A stretch of DNA of 48,914 bases from Nostoc sp. B(2019) (GTDB lineage Bacteria > Cyanobacteriota > Cyanobacteriia > Cyanobacteriales > Nostocaceae): assembly GCF_010091925.1 (NCBI RefSeq), contig NZ_WVID01000021.1, positions 67,482-116,395 on the forward strand. Direction: 5' to 3'. Within the stretch, counting starts at the first letter, position 1. Each line of letters starts with the position of its first letter. The notes under the pieces were generated by a model. That model did not search any database, was not told the origin of the DNA, and saw only the letters and a program-made list of their open reading frames with translations. Positions 5,632-15,489 of the stretch are shown here, piece after piece. The position numbers and the translations under genes were made by a program.

Positions 5632-6255
5632 ATGGAAACTAAGCCAACTGACCCATCGCTAGCACTCACAGAAATTCCCCCTGGCTATCTCAACATCATG
5701 GGTTACGTTGATAAATCAGAGGTCAACGGGCCTGGTTGTCGTGCTGTTGTTTGGGTGCAGGGTTGTCCTCGTGAGTGTCCTGGCTGCTTTAATCCTGACT
5801 CTTGGTCATTTGAGACTAACCAACTGATAGCTATTGATACCCTTGCAAAGAACATTCTCAGCAATCCCCACAATACAGGTTTGACGTTCTCTGGTGGAGA
5901 ACCCTTTTGGCAAGCGCCTGCACTAGCGTCTTTAGCGAGGAAGGTAAAAGCTGCGGGATTAAATATAATGTCTTTTACTGGATTCACCCTTGAGCAGCTA
6001 CAGTCTGAATCTGCACCGCCAGGTTCCCAAGCATTATTAGAACAATTAGATATCCTAATTGACGGGCCTTTTGTGCAAACTCTGGCACTTAATTCTCCCA
6101 ACTCCCCCGTTTCTTCTAGTAATCAGCGGGTTCATGTACTTAACCCTGCTTTCCAAGACCAAATTACTTGGGCGAGTGACCAGATAGAAGTTCACATCCT
6201 CAAGAATGGTGGTCGTATTGTTACTGGCTATCAAGGTGGGCTAGAGCTGACTTAG
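5632..6255 (+). CDS. Radical SAM activating protein, NrdG/PflA-like
   Basis: A protein of 207 aa from the ATG at 5632. That start is chosen because AAGGAG precedes it by about 8 nt, whereas the 162 nt upstream in the same frame looks like intergenic low-complexity sequence. CPRECPGC (C45, C49, C52) is the CX3CX2C motif that holds the radical-SAM 4Fe-4S cluster, and FSGGEPFW is the SAM-binding GGEP motif. The length and the GPGCRAVVWVQGC context fit the NrdG/PflA class, which makes a glycyl radical on a partner enzyme using SAM. No glycyl-radical enzyme or anaerobic ribonucleotide reductase is visible nearby, so the partner is unknown. The gene is monocistronic in this view. Confidence 0.8.
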   Translation: METKPTDPSLALTEIPPGYLNIMGYVDKSEVNGPGCRAVVWVQGCPRECPGCFNPDSWSFETNQLIAIDTLAKNILSNPHNTGLTFSGGEPFWQAPALASLARKVKAAGLNIMSFTGFTLEQLQSESAPPGSQALLEQLDILIDGPFVQTLALNSPNSPVSSSNQRVHVLNPAFQDQITWASDQIEVHILKNGGRIVTGYQGGLELT

Positions 6256-6336
6256 GAGGGAAGTGAGGGAGTGGAGGAGATATTTTTTGGAATATAACAA
6301 TGAGTTTTTGATACTCATTAATGACCTGAAATTATA

Positions 6337-6924
6337 TCAATCGCTACTTAGTTGTCCTTGACTCGTGCCATGTAGTTTAACAAAACTATCAAAGGCATAC
6401 CATGCTAATACGTACCAGGGAATAATTTCAAATTGCAGACCCTTATCTATTAACTGCCTAGCAGCAAGAATACTAAGTCCTAGTGGGAACAGAAAGCGCA
6501 AATCAACTGCACCGTTTGTTGCTAGTTCGACTTTTTTATTTAGGTCTACAACTGCATTCGTGACGCCCATTGCTGCCTCAGAGTCGCTTTGGGTAATACC
6601 GCCAAAAATAAGCCCTATATCTTGTAGAGTGGCAAAAACATTTTTTAAACTGCCATCTTTCCCATCGTGGTTGATAAGAATACTACCATGATAAATATTA
6701 GTCCGTACCTGACTAATGTTCGGTTGTGCTTCTAATACACTAGCAATGCGTTGCATTTCTTTCGCTCGACAATAGGGTCGAGCAATTCTTATTCTTAGCC
6801 TACCTGGGGTATTGCTGACAATTTTTGTATGTATATGTTTGGCTGGAGTTTTTATTGTTTTTGAGGTTGTTTGCTTTATAACTCTAGACATTTTGGTAAG
6901 ATGACCGTGATTATTTCTCAACAC
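6337..6924 (-). CDS. HMA_2-like domain membrane protein
   Basis: A 195-aa protein starting at a GTG, supported by a strong AGGAGG 6 nt upstream. Residues about 32-104 form a ferredoxin-like domain related to heavy-metal-associated domains (KIVSNTPGRLRIRIARPY), with PGRLRIRI where metal-binding HMA domains have GMxCxxC. There is no CxxC, so classical metal chelation is unlikely. Two hydrophobic stretches (about 144-158 and 165-184) suggest a membrane hairpin. It is the last gene of the HMA_2/P-type ATPase cluster, 127 nt after the DUF5132 gene. The closest match in type is the N-terminal domain of the ATPase at 7434-9704. Function unknown; a regulatory or accessory subunit is a guess. Confidence 0.65.
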   Translation of the reverse strand: MLRNNHGHLTKMSRVIKQTTSKTIKTPAKHIHTKIVSNTPGRLRIRIARPYCRAKEMQRIASVLEAQPNISQVRTNIYHGSILINHDGKDGSLKNVFATLQDIGLIFGGITQSDSEAAMGVTNAVVDLNKKVELATNGAVDLRFLFPLGLSILAARQLIDKGLQFEIIPWYVLAWYAFDSFVKLHGTSQGQLSSD

Positions 6925-7010
6925 ACAGCCGCCCTCCTGTAATTATATTTTGAGACAAAGAAAAACTTTTTGGTGAGCAAGGAAAGATGAGGAAGATACA
7001 GCAGATTTCA

Positions 7011-7038
7011 GTAGAGACGTTACATATAACGTCTCTAC
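7011..7038. terminator. Perfect 12-bp inverted repeat, possible terminator
   Basis: GTAGAGACGTTA (7011-7022) and its complement (7027-7038) flank a 4-nt loop, 13 bp downstream of the DUF5132 stop. Close relatives of this palindrome recur between genes in Nostoc. There is no T-run, so it may attenuate or stabilise mRNA ends rather than terminate transcription. Confidence 0.45.
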
Positions 7039-7051
7039 ATGTGATTCTCTC

Positions 7052-7360
7052 TTACGCACCATTATCTGCTGTAGTGTCAACAGGGGTGCTAACAGCTTCA
7101 AAAGCTGGATTTTGCTTGTCTTCAGCAATTTCTGCCTTGGCTTCGGCTACAATGTCTTCCCAGGTTTCGCCCAGTTCTGCAAAAGCTCCTTTGCTCTTTT
7201 CGTAAGCAACAAGTCCGCCTTTGATCATTGACTTGGCTAGGGGTTTACCAATTCCAGCTACAACGGGAACTATTACAGGGGCTAGTAGAACTGCCCCAAT
7301 ACCAGCTATAATCCCGACTGGGCCTGCATCTTCAACGAAATCAGTAATTTTAGGTGCCAT
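7052..7360 (-). CDS. DUF5132-type small membrane protein
   Basis: A 102-aa protein with one Gly/Val/Ile-rich hydrophobic segment (about 14-37, GIIAGIGAVLLAPVIVPVVA). Behind it lies an amphipathic, Glu/Ala-rich part (SKGAFAELGETWEDIVAEAK) ending in an acidic tail. The overall pattern is that of DUF5132, a small cyanobacterial/bacterial family with no known activity. GGAGGA 8 nt before the ATG supports the start. It sits 73 nt downstream of the P-type ATPase gene and upstream of an HMA_2 protein. A small membrane partner of the ATPase is plausible (inference from context only). Confidence 0.7.
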   Translation of the reverse strand: MAPKITDFVEDAGPVGIIAGIGAVLLAPVIVPVVAGIGKPLAKSMIKGGLVAYEKSKGAFAELGETWEDIVAEAKAEIAEDKQNPAFEAVSTPVDTTADNGA

Positions 7361-7433
7361 TGTTAAATTTCCTCCGGTAAATTAGGAAAATTGTAGTAAA
7401 GCTTTGAAGGATACTTTACTCAAAATCGTGATC

Positions 7434-9704
7434 TCATCTTGCTAGTGATAGAGTTGTGTTTGATGAGGGTTTGAGAATTGGACGCAAACCGTTTACTCCT
7501 GCAACCACTGTTGAGCCGTTGTTAACTACTGTTGCTGCTAAGGGGTTAAGACCAAACACCACTGCGATCGCCATAGCCGCTAAATTAGGAATAGCAACAA
7601 TACTGGTATTTTGATGAATTAACTGCCTGGCTTTACGAGCGATCGCGATCGCTTCTAATAAACCATACAAGTCATTCTGCATTAACACCACGTCTGCTGT
7701 CTCGCGGGCAATATCAGAACTATTAGCGAAGGAGACTGAAACATCAGCGTAGGCTAAAGCTGGTGAATCATTAATTCCATCACCTACAAATGCAACTGTT
7801 TTACCTTGTTCGTGTAGTTTGCGGACAACTGTTGCTTTTTGTTCGGGAAAAGCTTCTGCGTGAGTATGCGTTGGCGCAATGCCCAGCTTAGCAGCTACAG
7901 CGTTAGCTGTTCGCTTGTTATCTCCGGTGAGTATGTGAACTTCCACACCTTCAACCGTCAACAATTGAGCAACTACTTTTTGACTTTCTGGACGGAGAAC
8001 ATCACTATATTTTATCTTACCTTGAAGTTGGCCATTGCTAGCTACATAAATCGCTGAACTTGCCCCTTTTTGATGACCATTTAACTGTTCCATTTCAACG
8101 CCTTGCTGACGCAAAAAGCGATCGCTGCCTACATAAACAATTTCTCCATCAATCTCTGCTTGTACACCCAAACCCAGTTGGTAGTTCCACTTACTCCGAT
8201 TAGGAATTATCACTTGCTTTGCTTCGGCGTAGCGCATCACCGCCTCGGCTACTGGGTGTGTCAAACGTTGTTCAGCCGCCGCAGCTAATGCCAGCACCCG
8301 CGAGCTTGGCGTTAAAGAATTGAGACTCTCAACACCAACAACCGTCACTTCCCCTTTAGTCAGCGTCCCTGTCTTATCAAACACAATTGTGTCAACTGCT
8401 GCTAGTTGTTCTAGAGCACGTCCACTACGGATGAGAATACCGTGTTTTGCCGCATAAGTTAGGGCTGCTAAAACTGTTGTTGGAATAGATACCCGAATCC
8501 CTGTACATAAGTCGAGAGTCAGGACACTGGCTACTCGCGCTGGGTTGAGGGTTGTGGCAAACACTGCCCCACCGAGTAATAAAGTTGGTACAACAGCTTT
8601 TTCGGCAATTTTTGTCGCGTAGTTCTCCATGCGCGTATCGTGAACAGGAGCTTCTTGCATTAACTTGATACTTTGTCCAGCACGGGTGTCATTGCCTACC
8701 CGTTCCGCCAAGATATAAATCCGTCCCTCGCGCATTAAAGTGGAGGCAAAAACAGCTTGTCCCTTTTTCTTCAAGACTGGCATCGACTCGCCAGTGAGCT
8801 TCTGCTCATCCAGCAGCGCTTTACCGCGGAGGATACTACCATCAACTGGAACTTGTTCGCCAGGATAGACAATAACTGTATCACCGCGCTGCACTTCTTG
8901 CAGGGCAATTTGTTGCTTGATGCCATCGCGCTCAACCCAGACAAACTGTCCCAAGGAATTGAGTAAATCCAAAGTTTGCAATTGAGAAGAACGAGCAGTG
9001 CGATCGCGAATATTTTCGCCAATTTCAATTAAACTCAACATTAGTGATGGTGTGAGAAATTGACCTTGGACAGTAGTAATCGCGATCGCCATAAAATCCA
9101 AAAAGTCAATGTTCAATTTGCGCTGCGTCGTGATTCCATCCAAAGCTCTTTGGAAAACAGGCAATGTAGCTAAGGCAATAGTTCCCACCAGCATAATGGG
9201 TGGAATGGGCAACCCTAACGGCCCTCCCAGCAAAGCTAAACTAGTAGCCATAGCCGAAAGTTGCATACCAGGCCAGGATTTATTAGCATCGTCGTCTGCT
9301 GATGATGTGTTAGCAGCAAGAGTTATTGCTACGTCATTCGCCGCTAGGATCAGATAACTCAAACGCGATCGCATTTGAGCATCTGCAACTAAATCGCATT
9401 TATAAGTAACAACTAGCGACGCAGCCGCAAGATTGAGCCGGACACTCGTAAACAGGGGATCGCCTTGAATTAACCCTTGTAGCCTCTGAGCATAGTCTGT
9501 ATCATGGCGTAATCGAGGTATATGAAACCGTACTCTTCCCCGAATTGCATGGATGACACTGTAGGTAACTTGAGGAATCTGCTGGCGGGAATGTCCATTG
9601 CTATCAGCTAGACGAACTTTCCCATTCTGTTCTCTCGTAATCTCGTGAGCAATTTTAGTTGGCGGCGATGCTAATTGAACCGTAACTTTTGCCATTCCCT
9701 TCAC
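7434..9704 (-). CDS. P1B-like P-type ATPase with N-terminal HMA_2 domain and no CPx motif
   Basis: A 756-aa P-type ATPase. An N-terminal Cys-less HMA_2 domain (about 47-124, HAIRGRVRFHIP) is followed by membrane helices, the actuator TGES (304-307), the phosphorylation site DKTGT (D443), the nucleotide-domain HP pair (H483-P484), TGD (593-595) and the hinge GDGINDSP (641-648). The catalytic machinery is complete. The membrane helix that normally carries CPC/CPx has L-C-T (399-401) followed by GIRVSIP, and the last helices contain NNGSTVVAGVNGLRP. This departs from Cu/Ag/Zn/Cd exporters, so the ion cannot be assigned. The frame opens at GTG 9704, but ATG 9695 (MAKVTVQ) is an alternative; neither has a well-spaced Shine-Dalgarno. 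It is central to the HMA_2 gene set. Confidence 0.85.
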   Translation of the reverse strand: MKGMAKVTVQLASPPTKIAHEITREQNGKVRLADSNGHSRQQIPQVTYSVIHAIRGRVRFHIPRLRHDTDYAQRLQGLIQGDPLFTSVRLNLAAASLVVTYKCDLVADAQMRSRLSYLILAANDVAITLAANTSSADDDANKSWPGMQLSAMATSLALLGGPLGLPIPPIMLVGTIALATLPVFQRALDGITTQRKLNIDFLDFMAIAITTVQGQFLTPSLMLSLIEIGENIRDRTARSSQLQTLDLLNSLGQFVWVERDGIKQQIALQEVQRGDTVIVYPGEQVPVDGSILRGKALLDEQKLTGESMPVLKKKGQAVFASTLMREGRIYILAERVGNDTRAGQSIKLMQEAPVHDTRMENYATKIAEKAVVPTLLLGGAVFATTLNPARVASVLTLDLCTGIRVSIPTTVLAALTYAAKHGILIRSGRALEQLAAVDTIVFDKTGTLTKGEVTVVGVESLNSLTPSSRVLALAAAAEQRLTHPVAEAVMRYAEAKQVIIPNRSKWNYQLGLGVQAEIDGEIVYVGSDRFLRQQGVEMEQLNGHQKGASSAIYVASNGQLQGKIKYSDVLRPESQKVVAQLLTVEGVEVHILTGDNKRTANAVAAKLGIAPTHTHAEAFPEQKATVVRKLHEQGKTVAFVGDGINDSPALAYADVSVSFANSSDIARETADVVLMQNDLYGLLEAIAIARKARQLIHQNTSIVAIPNLAAMAIAVVFGLNPLAATVVNNGSTVVAGVNGLRPILKPSSNTTLSLAR

Positions 9705-9961
9705 TCATGTAGGTTTGTTACACTTGGTTATCTCTCCCGTCACGCAGATAAGATAGCGCCAAGAGAGCAAAATAGCCCCAATCTGGCGGCGAGATTGGTT
9801 AGTTGATGGCATTACTGATATATCAAATTCTGTTAGTAAAGTCCTTCCAATACTTTCCCTGATAAGCACCCTAAATCTCCTTTGTGTGGTAAGAAACAGT
9901 CAAAGGTTAGAGGTAAATTTCACCCTTTCCCCTTTTCCCTTTCCCCCTTAACCCAAAGGTA

Positions 9962-10735
9962 TTAAGAGGCGTTCTCGCTTGCCATCCCTACTGTTACATC
10001 GCTGGCAGATTCAATTAGACTAGCTAAATGTGATGCTGCCGTTTCCAAGACGCTTTGAACTTGCTTTTTGGAATCTTGGAGCATTCCAGTTTTATAAGTA
10101 ATCACAATTGATATTGCATCCCTATTAACTCGCTCACTTGTGACTACCGGATCTTCTTTGAGTAAAGCCTCTAAACGTTGGACGTATTTTGGATCTGAAG
10201 CAATTTGAGGTACGCGAAACCGCACTCTTCCTGGAATCGCATGAACAATGTTATACGCAACTTTTGTAGTTTGTTGAGCTAGTTGACGAGCTTCTTGGGG
10301 ATGGGTAACAAGCTCCGGCTCTGATGCAGGCTGTTGAGCTAGTTGACGAGCTTCCTGGGGATGGGTAACAAGCTCCGGCTCTGACTTTGAAATAGCTGGT
10401 TCTGTGCTTGTTTGCTCAACCGCCACTTCTGCATCGCTAGCAGCCTGAAGGAGACTAATCAAATGCCATCGCATCTCAAGATCTGACATTACCCCCGGCA
10501 TATAGGTAATGACAACAGATCCGACAATGGGATTAATTTGCTCACTAATTACCCAAGGTTCAGCTTGCAGCAACGTTAGCAGGCGTTGCCGATATTCGGA
10601 ATTTTCGCTAATTTGAGGCACATAAAATCCTACTTGTCCGGCAACTGCATAAGTAATGCTATAAATTACCTTTGTCGGCTGCGTGCAGGTGTGAATAGTA
10701 GATTTTGAAACTGAGCGTGATGTATTGTCCTCCAT
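9962..10735 (-). CDS. Protein with two HMA_2-like domains
   Basis: A 257-aa soluble-looking protein. Two copies of the HMA_2 fold sit at about 22-98 and 157-240. The second has the full signature HAIPGRVRFRVPQI; the first is degenerate (YAVAGQVGFYVPQI, both arginines lost). Neither has a metal-binding CxxC. They are joined by a linker in which EPELVTHPQEARQLAQQ occurs twice (about 119-135 and 139-155) because of a recent 60-bp duplication. GGAGG 6 nt upstream of the ATG supports the start. It follows the 398-aa HMA_2 gene by 31 nt and precedes the ATPase by 257 nt. A chaperone-like partner of the ATPase is a reasonable guess, with no direct evidence. Confidence 0.7.
   Translation of the reverse strand: MEDNTSRSVSKSTIHTCTQPTKVIYSITYAVAGQVGFYVPQISENSEYRQRLLTLLQAEPWVISEQINPIVGSVVITYMPGVMSDLEMRWHLISLLQAASDAEVAVEQTSTEPAISKSEPELVTHPQEARQLAQQPASEPELVTHPQEARQLAQQTTKVAYNIVHAIPGRVRFRVPQIASDPKYVQRLEALLKEDPVVTSERVNRDAISIVITYKTGMLQDSKKQVQSVLETAASHLASLIESASDVTVGMASENAS
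10272..10384. repeat. 60-bp tandem duplication inside an HMA_2 gene
   Basis: The 53 bp at 10272-10324 recur at 10332-10384 with one mismatch (T at 10295, C at 10355) and an exact 60-bp period. The frame is kept, so the linker gains 20 residues. The near identity suggests a recent event. Confidence 0.85.
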
Positions 10736-10766
10736 TTTTTCCTCCAGTGTTCCTGATAGAACTCGT

Positions 10767-11963
10767 CTATAAAGGAAGGTTCGCCATCAAGGCTAAGGAA
10801 TAAGACAGAGATGCAGGCTTTAAATCAGCCCATAAACTCGATATATCTAGAGTTTGTCCTTCCAAAACCGTTGTGGTTTCCATCCCTTCAGTAGACTGAC
10901 TAACTGGCTCTGGAGGTGGTTGCTGCTCTGTTGTTTTAATGAGGTTATTAGGTGGGTTCGTTTGCAAAGCCAACTCCATCAAATTCACCCAATGGCTTAT
11001 GTTAATCTCACTAGGCTGATAAGCGATCGCGATCGATGCTGCATCACAATTCACACGCACACTCAACACTTGGGGATCACTTCTCATTAATCTCTCTAGT
11101 CGCCTCGCGTAAGCACGATCCTCAGCAAGTCGAGGTATATTAAACCTGATACGTCCCTCAATTGCATGGACTACTCTATAAGCAATTTTTGCTGGTGCTG
11201 TGAACTCACCACCTTTATCAACAAAGACAGATTTGCTTTCTTCTTCTGTTGATGAAGATTGCGAGGTATTCTTATCCTCCCTTGGTGATTTACCTTCTCC
11301 AGTTGATAAGGGAGATTGCGGAGATTTTGTAACAGTAGTTGTTTGAGAAGTTTTGCTAGTTTTTGCTCCTGAAACTTGCGGCTCCAGATAATCAATCACC
11401 CGACGAGTTGCATCTGCTGTAATCATATAGACTGGAATCGCTGCCAAACCACTGACTCCCATTCCTCCGGTTACTGCCAACCCTGTTACTAAGGGAATAA
11501 ACGAAATAGACTGCTCTTTCCAAAAATCAAGTGATTTCCATGCAGCAAAAGCATCCATCTCACTGACAGACTCAGACGAAGCTTGAGGCTGGTGAATACC
11601 AAATTGTTCTAGTAGCTCCAATACCTGCGGCAATGACAGCTGATTTTCAGCATAAGTGACAATCATACTGCCCGTTTGCTGATTGGTCACAACTTCCCTC
11701 ACCCCACACTGTTGCCGTAAGTGTTGGGATATACTTTCTAGTCTTGAGTGAAAACTATCTTCACTAGCGCGGATTCTTACACGCCCAGTCGTAGCATGAA
11801 TGATTTGCAGTCCATCTGAAGACAGTTGCACTTGTGACTGTGCGACTGCTTTACTTGTATTCTGATTAATTTTTACTTCATTGCTTTGGCGTTCAGAAAA
11901 AATTAAGTCAGAAGACATTTTGGGCTGCGGACTTAACCCGTTGTGACTAACAGTATTGGTCAT
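10767..11963 (-). CDS. Membrane protein with two HMA_2-like domains
   Basis: A 398-aa protein, first gene of the HMA_2 set. Domain 1 is at about 51-123 (IIHATTGRVRIRA) and domain 2 at about 259-332 (VVHAIEGRIRFNIP). Between them, a weakly hydrophobic segment at about 153-182 (SISFIPLVTGLAVTGGMGVS) could be a membrane hairpin, and a Ser/Thr/Lys-rich linker follows (about 200-250). No CxxC occurs in either domain. The layout HMA_2 - hydrophobic hairpin - linker - HMA_2 resembles the front half of the neighbouring ATPase without its catalytic part. The start has only a weak GAG-type ribosome site. Tandem Pho-box-like repeats lie 26-44 bp upstream. Function unknown. Confidence 0.7.
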   Translation of the reverse strand: MTNTVSHNGLSPQPKMSSDLIFSERQSNEVKINQNTSKAVAQSQVQLSSDGLQIIHATTGRVRIRASEDSFHSRLESISQHLRQQCGVREVVTNQQTGSMIVTYAENQLSLPQVLELLEQFGIHQPQASSESVSEMDAFAAWKSLDFWKEQSISFIPLVTGLAVTGGMGVSGLAAIPVYMITADATRRVIDYLEPQVSGAKTSKTSQTTTVTKSPQSPLSTGEGKSPREDKNTSQSSSTEEESKSVFVDKGGEFTAPAKIAYRVVHAIEGRIRFNIPRLAEDRAYARRLERLMRSDPQVLSVRVNCDAASIAIAYQPSEINISHWVNLMELALQTNPPNNLIKTTEQQPPPEPVSQSTEGMETTTVLEGQTLDISSLWADLKPASLSYSLALMANLPL

Positions 11964-11977
11964 TTACTCGACAGCTA

Positions 11978-12018
11978 AACCAAACCATAGGTTAACAATA
12001 GGTTAAATGTACCTTAAA
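11978..12018 (-). promoter_or_regulatory. Tandem 11-bp-period repeats resembling a Pho box
   Basis: On the minus strand TTTAACCT (12000-12007) and GTTAACCT (11989-11996) stand 11 bp apart with 3-nt spacers. Weaker copies flank them at 12011-12018 (TTTAAGGT) and 11978-11985. The known cyanobacterial PhoB/SphR box is made of CTTAACCT-like octamers separated by 3 nt, so the two central copies match it at 7 of 8 positions each. The element ends about 15 bp before the ATG of the first HMA_2 gene. Confidence 0.45.
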
Positions 12019-12056
12019 CTTGAGTAGGAAGTATCATTCTTGAGAGCTATTCCGAA

Positions 12057-12590
12057 TTAAGTATTGTTAATTACTCGTTGTTGGTATTCTTGCTCTGTGA
12101 TCATATCGAGAGTAGTCTCTAGACGATCTACGAATACAATCCCGTCAAGATGGTCGTACTCGTGTTGAAAGATCCGAGCAACAAAATCAGTTAATTCTTG
12201 CTTTTGTAATTTGCCATTGCGATCAGTGTATTCCACTTCAATTGCCTGATATCTGGGAACTAACCCTCTAATCCCTGGAACACTTAAACAACCTTCCCAA
12301 CCTTTAACAATTTCAGTTGAATGAGCAACGATTCTGGGATTAATCATCGCAGTCGGTTCCATTTCCGGGGCATTGGGATACCTAGGATTAGGACGAGAAG
12401 CAACAATCAATAAACGATAGGATTCTGCTACTTGAGGTGCAGCAATTCCTACACCGTTCGCCTTGGCAACGGTAGCAATTAAATCTTCAATTAATTTTTG
12501 AATTTGCTCATCTTGAATATTGTCAACCCAAACAGCTTTTTGACGCAGTATTGGATTGCCTAATTGAATAATTGGCACTAATTCAGCCAT
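12057..12590 (-). CDS. def: Peptide deformylase
   Basis: A 177-aa enzyme that removes the formyl group from the N-terminal Met of new proteins. All three motifs are present: GVGIAAPQV (motif 1), EGCLSVPG (motif 2, metal-binding Cys) and HEYDHLDG (motif 3, two metal-binding His and the catalytic Glu). ATG 12590 (MAELVPIIQLGNPILRQ) is preferred. The same frame extends 63 nt further upstream, but that part is translated from a GGGGAGCA-type low-complexity repeat. It lies 96 nt downstream of the HtrA protease gene on the same strand. Confidence 0.95.
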   Translation of the reverse strand: MAELVPIIQLGNPILRQKAVWVDNIQDEQIQKLIEDLIATVAKANGVGIAAPQVAESYRLLIVASRPNPRYPNAPEMEPTAMINPRIVAHSTEIVKGWEGCLSVPGIRGLVPRYQAIEVEYTDRNGKLQKQELTDFVARIFQHEYDHLDGIVFVDRLETTLDMITEQEYQQRVINNT

Positions 12591-12686
12591 GATCAAAATT
12601 CCTTTATGTAATAGGGAGCAGGGGAGCAAGGGAGCAGAGGGGCAGAGGGGCAATAAATACTGACTCTTGATCCTTGACCCTTGACA

Positions 12687-13949
12687 TCAGCCTTCACGTT
12701 GTACAGGTAAAGGAGCAGGTCGGACTCCTACTTGTGAACTTTGTCCATCGCGTTCAACCTGTATTTGCAACGTACTACCGATTTTGCTATTTTCTACGAG
12801 TTTTTGTACTTCCTCAATTTTTGTAACAGGTTGGTTATTAATGCTTTTAATTACATCACCGGATTGTAGTCCAGCCACAGATGCGGGCGATCGCGGCACA
12901 ACAGCAACTACTAAAACGCCCTGATCTGCTCTAAGATTGAGGCGATCGCCAACTCTATTTTGGATTCTTTCTTTAACTTCTGGTGTCAGTGTCACCATCT
13001 GCACACCTAAATAAGGATGCTCGACTTTGCCATTAGCAATTAATTCCTGAGCAATTCTTTGTACCGTATTGATGGGAATTGCAAAGCCCAAACCTTGAGC
13101 GCCTCGGATAATGGCTGTGTTCATCCCAATCGCCTGGCCACGAGCATTTAGCAGTGGCCCACCAGAGTTACCAGGGTTAATAGCAGCATCGGTTTGAATG
13201 TAATCAACCCGCTTATCGCTAGCACCGATATCACTACCAGAGCGACCTGTAGCACTAATAATCCCAGAAGTAACGGTATTATTTAGACCTAAAGGATTAC
13301 CGATAGCAATTACTGCTTCCCCTGGTTGCAGCCCATCGGAGTTACCCACAGCTAAAGTTGGCAGATTATTGGCGTCAATGTTGATTACAGCCACATCAGT
13401 TACCGGGTCTTCACCCAGTACTTTGCCATCAAAAGTCCGCCCATCTTTAAGTGTAACGGTGACTCTATCAGCACCATCTACCACATGGGAATTGGTCAAA
13501 ATTTGACCTGAAGAATTAATAATCCATCCAGAGCCACTACCCCGTTCTACCCGCTGTCTAGGCTGTGATGGTACGTTTTCTCCAAAAAACCGCCGGAAAA
13601 ATGGATCGTTAAATTCGTCTGGTACACGAGAAGTGACTGTTCTAGCAGAATCAATCCGAACTACCGCAGGCCCAACCCTTTGCACTACTGCGACTACAAA
13701 GTTGGGATCTCCAGAGGACGAAATAATTGGCGGGGGAGCAATTATCGGATTGGAGACAGTAGTATTTTGAGGCTGAGTATCGTTTTGTTGAGTCTCTAAT
13801 GACTTGGTAGGTAAAAAAGAGCAGCTTCCCAAAAACACCACTGCAACCCCTTTTAGCATCATCAATAAAACACTGTTTACTCTCCATCTGTGGGGCAAAT
13901 TATTGGTATCAATATTTTTATTCGTTAAGTAATGGTCTGTGTTTTTCAT
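12687..13949 (-). CDS. HtrA/Deg-family serine protease with PDZ domain
   Basis: A 420-aa trypsin-like protease of the S1C family (cyanobacterial HtrA/HhoA/HhoB group), which degrades or refolds damaged proteins outside the cytoplasm. The catalytic triad is visible: H155 in TNSHVV, D185 in TDVAV and S262 in GNSGGPL. One PDZ domain covers about 312-402. The N-terminus has a short hydrophobic stretch ending LGSC (C43), a possible lipobox, so it may be a lipoprotein or simply a membrane-anchored protein. A single PDZ fits the Hho/DegS type better than two-PDZ DegP. It is transcribed away from dnaA and toward def. Confidence 0.92.
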
Positions 13950-13981
13950 GTATTTTTACTTCTCCGTGCTAGTCAGTCGGT

Positions 13982-14041
13982 GGTAGGATATTGCCTACCG
14001 GGTATATCCCAGAATGATCACAACTAGAAAGCTTGTTCTAG
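13982..14041. promoter_or_regulatory. Two small palindromes between htrA-like gene and dnaA
   Basis: GGTAGG-6 nt-CCTACC (13982-13999) and CTAGAA-6 nt-TTCTAG (14024-14041) lie in the 169-bp divergent gap. Either could be an operator for one of the two genes. No DnaA box (TTATCCACA) is present in this gap. Confidence 0.25.
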
Positions 14042-14118
14042 GTCTTGAGTATCTCAATGCTAAATTGGTGCTTGCTCATATCTTCTATTGTGACGATTAG
14101 CAGCAAAGGTAGTAGATA

Positions 14119-15489
14119 ATGGAAATTCCCATAGAAAGTCTGTGGAGTCAGGTATTAGAGCGTTTACAGCTAGAATTATCCCGACCCACCTTTGAAACTT
14201 GGATCAAAACTGCTAGTGCGGAGCGATTAGAAAATAATTGTTTAGTTATACGTACTCCTAACCCATTTGCTCGCAATTGGTTACAAAAATATTACATCAA
14301 TACAATCGCCCATGTGGTGCAAGATATTTTAGGGCATCCTGTGGAAATTTATATTACTGTTGCCAAAGGGGATGAATCTCATCTGAGTACACGAAATGTT
14401 ACTGAAGAATTACCAGTTTCAAGCAGTACTGCCCAGAGTGTTGATACAAACAAACAAAAAGCTACAAAATTAAATTCTAAGTATATATTTTCCCGATTTG
14501 TAGTTGGGGCTAATAACCGTATGGCTCACGCTGCGTCTTTAGCTGTTGCTGAATCTCCAGGTAGAGAATTTAATCCCTTATTTTTATGCGGTGGCGTAGG
14601 CTTAGGTAAAACTCATTTAATGCAGGCTATTGGTCACTATCGCTGTGAAATTTGTCCTGATTGCAAAATATTTTATGTTTCTACTGAGCAGTTTACTAAT
14701 GATTTAATTACAGCAATCCGTAAGGATAGTATGCAAAGTTTTCGAGAACATTATCGGGCTGCTGATGTTTTGTTAGTAGATGATATTCAGTTTTTGGAAG
14801 GTAAAGAATATACGCAAGAAGAATTTTTTCATACTTTTAATACTTTACACGAAGCTGGAAAACAAGTTGTGATAGCTTCTGATCGCCCTCCTAACCATAT
14901 TCCTAGCTTACAAGAACGTCTTTGTTCTCGTTTTTCTATGGGGTTAATTGCGGATATTCAACCACCAGATTTAGAAACTAGAATGGCAATTTTACAGAAA
15001 AAATCTGAGTATGAAAATATTCGTCTTCCCAGAGATGTGATTGAGTATATTGCTTCTAACTATACTTCTAATATTCGAGAATTAGAAGGAGCTTTAATTC
15101 GGGCACTAGCCTATATTTCTATTTGGGGTTTACCCATGACTGTGGGAAATATCGCACCAGTTTTAGAGCCATCTAGTGAGAAAGTGGCAGCTACTCCAGA
15201 AGCAATTTTGAAAATTATAGCGGATACTTTTGATGTTTCAGTTGAAGACCTTAAAAGCAACTCACGCCGTCGGGAAATTAGCTGGGCGCGTCAAATAGGG
15301 ATGTATCTAATGCGGCAACATACGGCTCTAAGTTTGCCTAGAATTGGCGAAGAGTTTGGTGGTAAAGATCATACAACGGTAATCTACAGTTGTGATAAAA
15401 TCACCCAACTCCGAGAAAGCGATCGCACCTTAGCTCAAACACTACGTCAACTAAGCGATCGCATCAATATGACTAGCCGCTCCCAGTAA
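14119..15489 (+). CDS. dnaA: Chromosomal replication initiator DnaA
   Basis: A 456-aa AAA+ initiator that binds DnaA boxes and opens the origin. Domain I is at about 1-85 (helicase-loading region), and a short polar domain II follows to about 115. Domain III carries Walker [11 protein letters not shown] (158-167) and Walker B VDDIQF (220-225). Domain IV ends with the helix-turn-helix signature [11 protein letters not shown] (415-425). The length is normal. Its downstream neighbour is aspS, 209 nt away on the same strand, not dnaN. No cluster of DnaA boxes is visible beside it, so the position of oriC is not marked by this gene. Confidence 0.97.

What the first reader, a model, noticed from the sequence alone, without database searches (positions are those of the whole stretch)
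6337..11963. Six Cys-less HMA_2-like domains spread over four adjacent genes with a P-type ATPase and DUF5132
Seen: the motif HAxxGRVRF/I followed by an IPR/VPQ turn, a helix with RLxxLL, and a VTSxRVNxxxxSIVITY strand recurs six times: at about 51 and 259 of the 398-aa protein, 22 and 157 of the 257-aa protein, 47 of the ATPase and 32 of the 195-aa protein. None has the CxxC that binds metal in classical HMA domains. Known: HMA domains pass metal to P1B ATPases through Cys pairs. Inference: the cluster may be a transport or sensing module in which Arg/His-rich ferredoxin-like domains replace Cys-based metal handling, perhaps for an anion, a hard metal, a nucleotide or lipid phosphate. This is my best candidate for a little-described system.
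Basis: partly seen in the sequence, partly recalled or inferred. Interest (0 to 1): 0.75.

Follow-up and report, generated by a model that had tools for sequence, protein, structure and literature searches.

The report
Cyanobacterial iron-linked metal-pump membrane cluster
These five genes of a Nostoc-type cyanobacterium most likely build a membrane patch or small compartment around an ATP-driven metal pump, resembling the bacterial iron-storage organelles called ferrosomes, and could test whether cyanobacteria store iron this way.

Summary
The six domains are real: all match Pfam HMA_2 and none has CxxC. They lie in four genes with a P1B-type ATPase and DUF5132. In 146 cyanobacterial genomes HMA_2 and DUF5132 occur in the same 25; the operon order holds in 76 of 80 named loci. 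Sister ATPases that keep the HN motif of P1B6 ATPases lie within 8 kb of the iron importer FeoB in 10 of 14 genomes; one such operon also holds FeoA, FeoC, ferritin and DUF2202. Four P1B6-type operons of other bacteria carry HMA_2 proteins, an ATPase with a clear or weak HMA_2 domain, and a small membrane protein detectably related to DUF5132; two have annotated iron-transport genes beside them. Best reading: a cyanobacterial variant of the ferrosome (fez)-type iron-handling platform, in which basic HMA_2 domains are docking or membrane-address modules, not metal carriers. Caveats: the window's ATPase belongs to a paralogue clade with NN for HN, its genome shows no FeoB, no organelle has been seen, and the fez papers could not be read here.

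The parts
10767..11963 (-). 398-aa protein, first gene of the cluster: two HMA_2 domains with a hydrophobic stretch between them
   Evidence: PF19991 E 4.7e-15 for the protein; domains at residues 51-127 and 257-334; hydrophobic stretch read from the sequence
11583..11813 (-). HMA_2 domain 1 of the 398-aa protein (HATTGRVRI)
10962..11195 (-). HMA_2 domain 2 of the 398-aa protein (HAIEGRIRF)
9962..10735 (-). 257-aa protein: two HMA_2 domains, no obvious membrane segment; 0 to 4 HMA_2 copies in this position in relatives
   Evidence: PF19991 E 4.3e-14; copy number in relatives
10430..10678 (-). HMA_2 domain 1 of the 257-aa protein, degenerate (YAVAGQVGF, no Arg pair)
10046..10270 (-). HMA_2 domain 2 of the 257-aa protein (HAIPGRVRF)
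7434..9704 (-). 756-aa P1B-type ATPase with N-terminal HMA_2 domain; LTGES, DKTGT and GDGIND all present
   Evidence: TIGR01525 510.8 bits over cut-off 346.25; sequence
9333..9578 (-). N-terminal HMA_2 domain of the ATPase (HAIRGRVRF)
8475..8522 (-). TM4 motif LTLDLCTGIRVSIPTT, where classical P1B ATPases have the CPC motif
   Evidence: alignment to CopA; survey
8364..8378 (-). phosphorylation motif DKTGT
7518..7523 (-). Asn-Asn of TM6, where P1B6 ATPases and the Feo-linked sister clade have His-Asn
   Evidence: HN motif as given in PMC9374683
7052..7360 (-). DUF5132 protein (102 aa): hydrophobic helix followed by an acidic Glu/Ala helix
   Evidence: PF17195 E 5.1e-18; alignment A4; low-confidence model
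6337..6924 (-). 195-aa protein: HMA_2 domain plus a conserved C-terminal hydrophobic region (PWYVLAWYAFDSF)
   Evidence: PF19991 E 5.1e-11; alignment A3; model
6616..6843 (-). HMA_2 domain of the 195-aa protein (NTPGRLRI), predicted ferredoxin-like fold
6367..6579 (-). three C-terminal helices of the 195-aa protein, probably membrane-associated
   Evidence: hydrophobicity read from the sequence

Best explanation
The cluster is a metal-handling membrane assembly of the ferrosome (fez) and PacL-platform sort. The 756-aa P1B6-like ATPase pumps a divalent metal, most likely Fe2+, out of the cytosol, either into a membrane-bounded store or across the inner membrane. DUF5132, a membrane helix with an acidic Glu/Ala tail helix, and the multi-copy HMA_2 proteins gather and stabilise the pump. 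The basic HMA_2 domains act as docking or membrane-address modules that bind an acidic partner (the DUF5132 helix or anionic lipid); they do not carry metal. Shown here: conserved operon, co-occurrence, Feo/ferritin link of the sister clade, shared parts with P1B6-type operons of other bacteria, absence of CxxC, conserved basic residues, ferredoxin-like fold of one copy. Inferred: substrate, direction, docking, compartment.
For: HMA_2 and DUF5132 in the same 25 of 146 genomes, within 3.5 kb of each other in 21 of 25. Order HMA_2, ATPase, DUF5132, HMA_2 in 76 of 80 named loci; three of the other four reach a contig end first and the fourth is a lone ATPase on a 4.6-kb contig. Sister-clade ATPases (VTG in TM4, HN in TM6) within 8 kb of FeoB in 10 of 14 genomes, about 0.06 expected, in five families; FeoB in 14 of 14 such genomes against 48 of 132 others. 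L105 is FeoA-FeoB-FeoC-ferritin-DUF2202-HMA_2-ATPase-DUF5132 on one strand. P1B6-type operons of Azospirillum, Arcobacter, Cereibacter and Vibrio carry HMA_2 proteins and a small TM-plus-acidic-helix protein directly before the ATPase; DUF2202 lies inside the Arcobacter operon, an iron ABC transporter beside the Azospirillum one, FeoA, FecR and TonB-receptor genes beside the Cereibacter one. DUF5132 against those small proteins: hhalign score 37.5, against at most 14.9 for 60 column shuffles and at most 23.3 for 25 sets of ATP-synthase b subunits. HMA_2 also tags a PAP2 and a YegS/DAGK lipid enzyme. Basic residues at the two Arg sites of GRxR in 91% and 89% of domains; DUF5132 helix mean charge -5.3.
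Against: The window's own clade has NN, not HN, in TM6, and of the loci read it adjoins Feo genes only in Richelia sinica, where both clusters lie side by side (L186). The window's genome has no FeoB_C match. The cyanobacterial clade does not fall inside the P1B6 clade in the tree (quick method, midpoint root), and the fork joining window clade and sister has support 83 only. HMA_2 and DUF5132 also serve a PMR1-like P2-type ATPase, so the module is not tied to one metal. Arcobacter and Cereibacter ATPases show only weak HMA_2 signals, and Pfam finds no DUF5132 in the Vibrio small protein or the Deinococcus one. No FezC/DUF4405 was noted. No organelle has been seen.
Confidence: 0.5

Rival explanations
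1. A PacL/CtpC-type efflux platform in the plasma membrane: the ATPase exports excess metal (Zn, Mn, Fe or other) from the cell, DUF5132 is the scaffold and no compartment is made.
For: PacL1 is a TM plus Glu/Ala protein that stabilises the P1B6-like ATPase CtpC in foci (PMC9374683, abstract and passages). DUF5132 has the same layout, and 6 of 118 DUF5132 entries (Calothrix and kin; some genes counted twice) end in HPETHDHDHG or close variants, much like the Zn-binding D87LHDHDH93 of PacL1.
Against: DUF5132 against DUF1490 scores 20.8, about the ATP-synthase b control of 19.7; no DUF1490 or DUF6110 hit in 35 members. 112 of 118 entries lack the His tail. The sister clade sits with Fe(II) import and ferritin genes.
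Confidence: 0.25
2. The window's NN clade has changed substrate (Mn2+, Mg2+ or Ca2+) while keeping the platform; iron is the job of the sister clade only.
For: NN is found in 77 of the 79 P1B-type ATPases of the named loci whose TM6 could be read; the other two are HN-type, and two more are cut by contig ends. Genomes G000 and G101 have the NN cluster and no FeoB. The same module serves a PMR1-like Ca/Mn-type ATPase and, in the window's own genome, lies beside PstB and MgtE-like genes.
Against: NN also occurs in the deeper branches Gloeothece and Methylobacterium, so it need not mark a new substrate. Gene set resembles that of the Feo-linked clusters.
Confidence: 0.2
3. The HMA_2 domains carry or sense an anion, nucleotide or lipid phosphate and gate a non-metal P-type pump.
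For: Conserved basic residues; fusions to lipid enzymes.
Against: The ATPase core is P1B and the sister clade's neighbours point to iron. An anionic ligand of the domain would fit targeting as well as sensing.
Confidence: 0.05

Closest known systems
Ferrosome (fez) operons with P1B6 ATPase FezB
   Same: P1B6-like ATPase, a gene for a small TM protein close to the ATPase gene, iron context in the sister clade; P1B6-type operons read here also carry HMA_2 proteins
   Different: TM4 is LCTG/FATG/FVTG instead of SCA; the window has NN for HN; DUF5132 in place of the YtxH-like protein; no FezC noted. The fez papers were not held; FezB = P1B-6 and the six-gene fez operon are recalled from the abstract
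PacL (DUF1490)-CtpC metal efflux platforms of Actinobacteria
   Same: TM plus Glu/Ala-rich small protein encoded with a P1B6-like ATPase; His/Asp tail in 6 of 118 DUF5132 entries
   Different: No sequence relationship above control; the DUF1490-linked ATPase read here has CPC in TM4; HMA_2 proteins were not looked for there
HMA_2 (PF19991), by recall the same as the CoBaHMA family (conserved basic residues HMA) first seen in calcyanin of carbonate-forming cyanobacteria
   Same: Cys-less ferredoxin-like HMA domain with conserved basic residues, fused to transporters and lipid enzymes
   Different: CoBaHMA is recalled, the paper is not held. The link to DUF5132, FeoB and P1B6-type operons is what is added here
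Classical HMA domains of CopA/ZntA (PF00403)
   Same: ferredoxin-like fold, N-terminal position in the ATPase
   Different: no CxxC; basic GRxR hairpin instead

Membership tests
HMA_2 (PF19991) | match to the curated profile | tested here: met
   three of four proteins over cut-off, ATPase 28.5 bits against 30; the ATPase stretch scores 30.8 bits, over cut-off, in the genome search
Classical HMA (PF00403) | CxxC metal site | tested here: not met
   none in the six window copies; 0 of 531 domain hits in the neighbourhoods
P1B ATPase | TIGR01525 over cut-off; DKTGT, TGES, GDGIND | tested here: met
   510.8 bits, cut-off 346.25; motifs
P1B6 ATPase | HN motif in TM6 | tested here: not met
   window has NN; the Feo-linked sister clade has HN
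P1B6 ATPase | falls in the P1B6 clade | tested here: inconclusive
   separate branch in a 35-row quick tree with only three P1B6-type rows
Ferrosome (fez) system | P1B6-type ATPase FezB homologue | tested here: inconclusive
   P1B6-type operons of four bacteria share parts, but no FezB of a named ferrosome maker was at hand
Ferrosome (fez) system | forms lipid-bounded iron bodies | not testable with these tools
   needs electron microscopy
Ferrosome (fez) system | FezC (DUF4405-like cytochrome) in the operon | tested here: inconclusive
   none among the neighbours scanned with Pfam, but most neighbours were not scanned
PacL / DUF1490 | match to PF07371 or relationship to it | tested here: not met
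   no hit in 35 members; hhalign at control level

The most novel reading that the evidence does not exclude
Cyanobacteria, photosynthetic and oxygen-making, build a family of ATPase-loaded membrane compartments for cation (iron, perhaps also calcium or magnesium) phosphate storage. Basic HMA_2 domains are the common address tag that brings P1B-like pumps, PMR1-like pumps, lipid phosphatase and lipid kinase to one membrane, with DUF5132 as the acidic receptor.
Probability: 0.17. Interest if true: 0.85.

Novelty: new variant of a known kind. Interest (0 to 1): 0.6.

Why it matters
If right, it extends ferrosome-type iron handling to cyanobacteria, whose iron budget limits photosynthesis and nitrogen fixation, and gives a function to two orphan Pfam families (HMA_2 and DUF5132) as docking parts. 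It also gives a list of cultured strains in which the idea can be tested directly.

Tried and rejected
Classical Cys-based metal relay: rejected, no CxxC in 531 domain hits.

DUF5132 as a PacL/DUF1490 homologue: attractive by layout and by the His tails, but the profile comparison is at control level, so it is kept only as a functional analogy.

Promoter and terminator scan of 6000-12700: no excess over shuffles (11 found against a mean of 11.7; 8 against 6.3). No regulator site could be named.

HMA_2 relatives of the 195-aa protein on plasmids: none at E 0.01. Held papers with DUF5132 or 'HMA2 domain-containing': none. One search found five papers with calcyanin and none with CoBaHMA. One search was useless because 'HMA_2' is read as the plant gene HMA2.

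Rows dropped: five near-duplicate ATPases (L101, L091, L076 and two of L186) were left out of the tree and the short L102 one never entered it. In the FeoB distance test 14 genomes were used. G045 (not fetched), G097 (its ATPase contigs not fetched), G085 and G089 (no HN-type ATPase seen) were left out. FeoB lies on another contig in G024, G116 and G111 and 1.35 Mb away in G002, whose ATPase gene is split between two frames (L102). Genomes are not independent: several share a family, so the p-values overstate the case.
Full report
What is there. On the minus strand the window holds five genes in a row: a 398-aa protein with two HMA_2 domains, a 257-aa protein with two, a 756-aa P1B-type ATPase with one at its N-terminus, a 102-aa DUF5132 protein and a 195-aa protein with one HMA_2 domain. 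A PF19991 search of the window's own genome finds these six plus two more on another contig. No copy has CxxC. Of 507 distinct domain hits from the neighbourhoods examined, 91% and 89% carry a basic residue at the two Arg sites of GRxR; one of the six window copies has lost both. The ATPase has the catalytic motifs, but TM4 reads LTLDLCTGIRVS where CopA has its CPC motif. The 195-aa copy is predicted as a ferredoxin-like domain followed by three helices. Solved HMA metal-binding domains are among its best structural matches, tied with unrelated ferredoxin-like proteins.

More than chance. In 146 cyanobacterial genomes DUF5132 is found in 25 and HMA_2 in 25 (24 over the Pfam cut-off), the same 25. 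In 21 of these the two lie within 3.5 kb and in 23 within 6.5 kb; G085 and G089 are the exceptions. A scan of named genomes with the TM4 region found 281 relatives, of which the best 80 were kept, nearly all Nostocales. The order HMA_2 protein(s), ATPase, DUF5132, HMA_2 protein holds in 76 of the 80; L142, L157 and L162 run into a contig end and L193 is a lone ATPase on a 4.6-kb contig. The second gene carries 0 to 4 HMA_2 domains, and the loci 3 to 8 in all, counted in the 77 that hold both ATPase and DUF5132. Of the 81 P1B-type ATPases in these loci 77 read NN in TM6, 2 read HN and 2 are cut off; one further ATPase is P2-type.

The iron link. A sister clade of the window's ATPase keeps the HN of TM6 that PMC9374683 gives as a P1B6 mark (passages). 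In the tree the window clade has 8 rows and support 98, the sister clade 11 rows and support 100, and the fork joining them support 83. In 14 genomes with the HN type, FeoB lies within 8 kb of the ATPase in 10, against about 0.06 expected, and FeoB is present in all 14 against 48 of the other 132. The ten fall in five families but are not independent. Locus L105 reads FeoA, FeoB, FeoC, ferritin, DUF2202, HMA_2 protein, ATPase, DUF5132 on one strand; FeoA, FeoC, ferritin and DUF2202 are named by Pfam and FeoB by the FeoB_C match. In L090 and L107 the FeoB lacks its GTPase domain. Of the loci read, the window's clade adjoins Feo genes only in Richelia sinica, where both clusters lie side by side (L186), and the window's genome has no FeoB_C match. 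Iron is therefore inferred for the window, not shown.

The same parts elsewhere. Four plasmid-borne P1B6-type operons outside cyanobacteria were read. In Azospirillum brasilense two HMA_2 proteins, two small proteins, a YtxH-type small protein and the ATPase stand in a row next to an iron ABC transporter. In Arcobacter the operon includes an HMA_2 protein, DUF2202 and the YtxH-type protein. Cereibacter has FeoA, FecR and TonB-receptor genes around it. Vibrio has HMA_2 proteins, the small protein and the ATPase; an iron-siderophore-type permease about 6.5 kb away is my reading of the sequence, not a search result. The Vibrio ATPase passes the HMA_2 cut-off (49.1 bits) and the Azospirillum one matches the profile built here (E 3e-12), while Arcobacter (17.5 bits) and Cereibacter (E 6e-4) are weak. 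The small TM-plus-acidic-helix proteins from the four operons match the DUF5132 profile with hhalign score 37.5 and probability 85.5, against at most 14.9 in 60 column shuffles and at most 23.3 against 25 sets of ATP-synthase b subunits. The small proteins themselves score 27.8 against the b subunits, so some of the signal is general helix composition. In Pfam, Cereibacter's small protein reaches DUF5132 only at E 0.031 and Vibrio's not at all. A Deinococcus plasmid has a gene directly before an ATPase with two HMA_2 domains that matches my DUF5132 profile (E 3e-6) but not Pfam's.

How it probably works. PacL1 and CtpC form membrane foci, and DUF6110 proteins encoded with P1B6 ATPases are proposed to do the same (PMC9374683, passages). 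FezB is described as a putative ferrous iron transporter and is needed for ferrosome formation (PMC10979944 and PMC12574912, passages). The simplest account is that the pump removes Fe2+ from the cytosol into a store or across the membrane, that DUF5132 anchors and clusters it, and that basic HMA_2 domains dock on an acidic partner. The DUF5132 tail helix carries a mean charge of -5.3, measured in the 107 of 115 entries where it could be located. HMA_2 is also fused to a PAP2 phosphatase and a YegS lipid kinase, to a PMR1-like P2-type ATPase that in several loci lies beside a DUF5132 gene, and to an ATPase-like protein without DKTGT. That spread of clients suits an address or assembly tag better than a metal carrier. 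Docking, direction, substrate and any compartment are inference.

What is known. HMA_2 is a curated Pfam family, and I recall it as the CoBaHMA family described from calcyanin; that paper is not held. DUF5132 appears in none of the held papers. Ferrosome, cyanobacteria and iron storage co-occur in one held paper, a review of magnetotactic bacteria seen only in the listing. The original fez papers are not held, so a comparison with FezA-C was impossible. The finding is best called a new variant of a known kind.

Noticed in passing
L009 (G000:C34:44000-62000), 6420-14162: Second cluster in the same genome: PMR1-like P2-type ATPase with N-terminal HMA_2, methionine adenosyltransferase, HMA_2 protein, DUF5132, PstB and an MgtE-like protein. 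The ATPase-adenosyltransferase pair recurs in other genomes.
   Followed up: partly
L109:11825-13393 (Gloeothece verrucosa PCC 7822 plasmid): 522-aa protein that looks like a P-type ATPase without the DKTGT motif, with N-terminal HMA_2; perhaps a regulatory or structural pseudo-pump. No NCBIfam match at E 1e-20.
   Followed up: partly
L109:14950-16452 and L078:6368-7339: HMA_2 fused to a YegS/DAGK lipid kinase and to a PAP2 phosphatase.
   Followed up: partly
L165, L177, L181, L187, L191, L192 (Calothrix and kin): DUF5132 proteins end in HPETHDHDHG or close variants, resembling the zinc-binding tail of PacL1.
   Followed up: partly
L090:13220-14683 and L107:12497-13951: FeoB-like proteins lacking the GTPase domain (Gate, FeoB_C and FeoB_Cyto only).
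   Followed up: no
window about 10274-10381: Linker of the 257-aa protein holds two copies of EPELVTHPQEARQLAQQ.
   Followed up: no
window 10430-10678: First HMA_2 domain of the 257-aa protein has lost the Arg pair (GQVGF); a minority of relatives show Q or G at these sites too.
   Followed up: no
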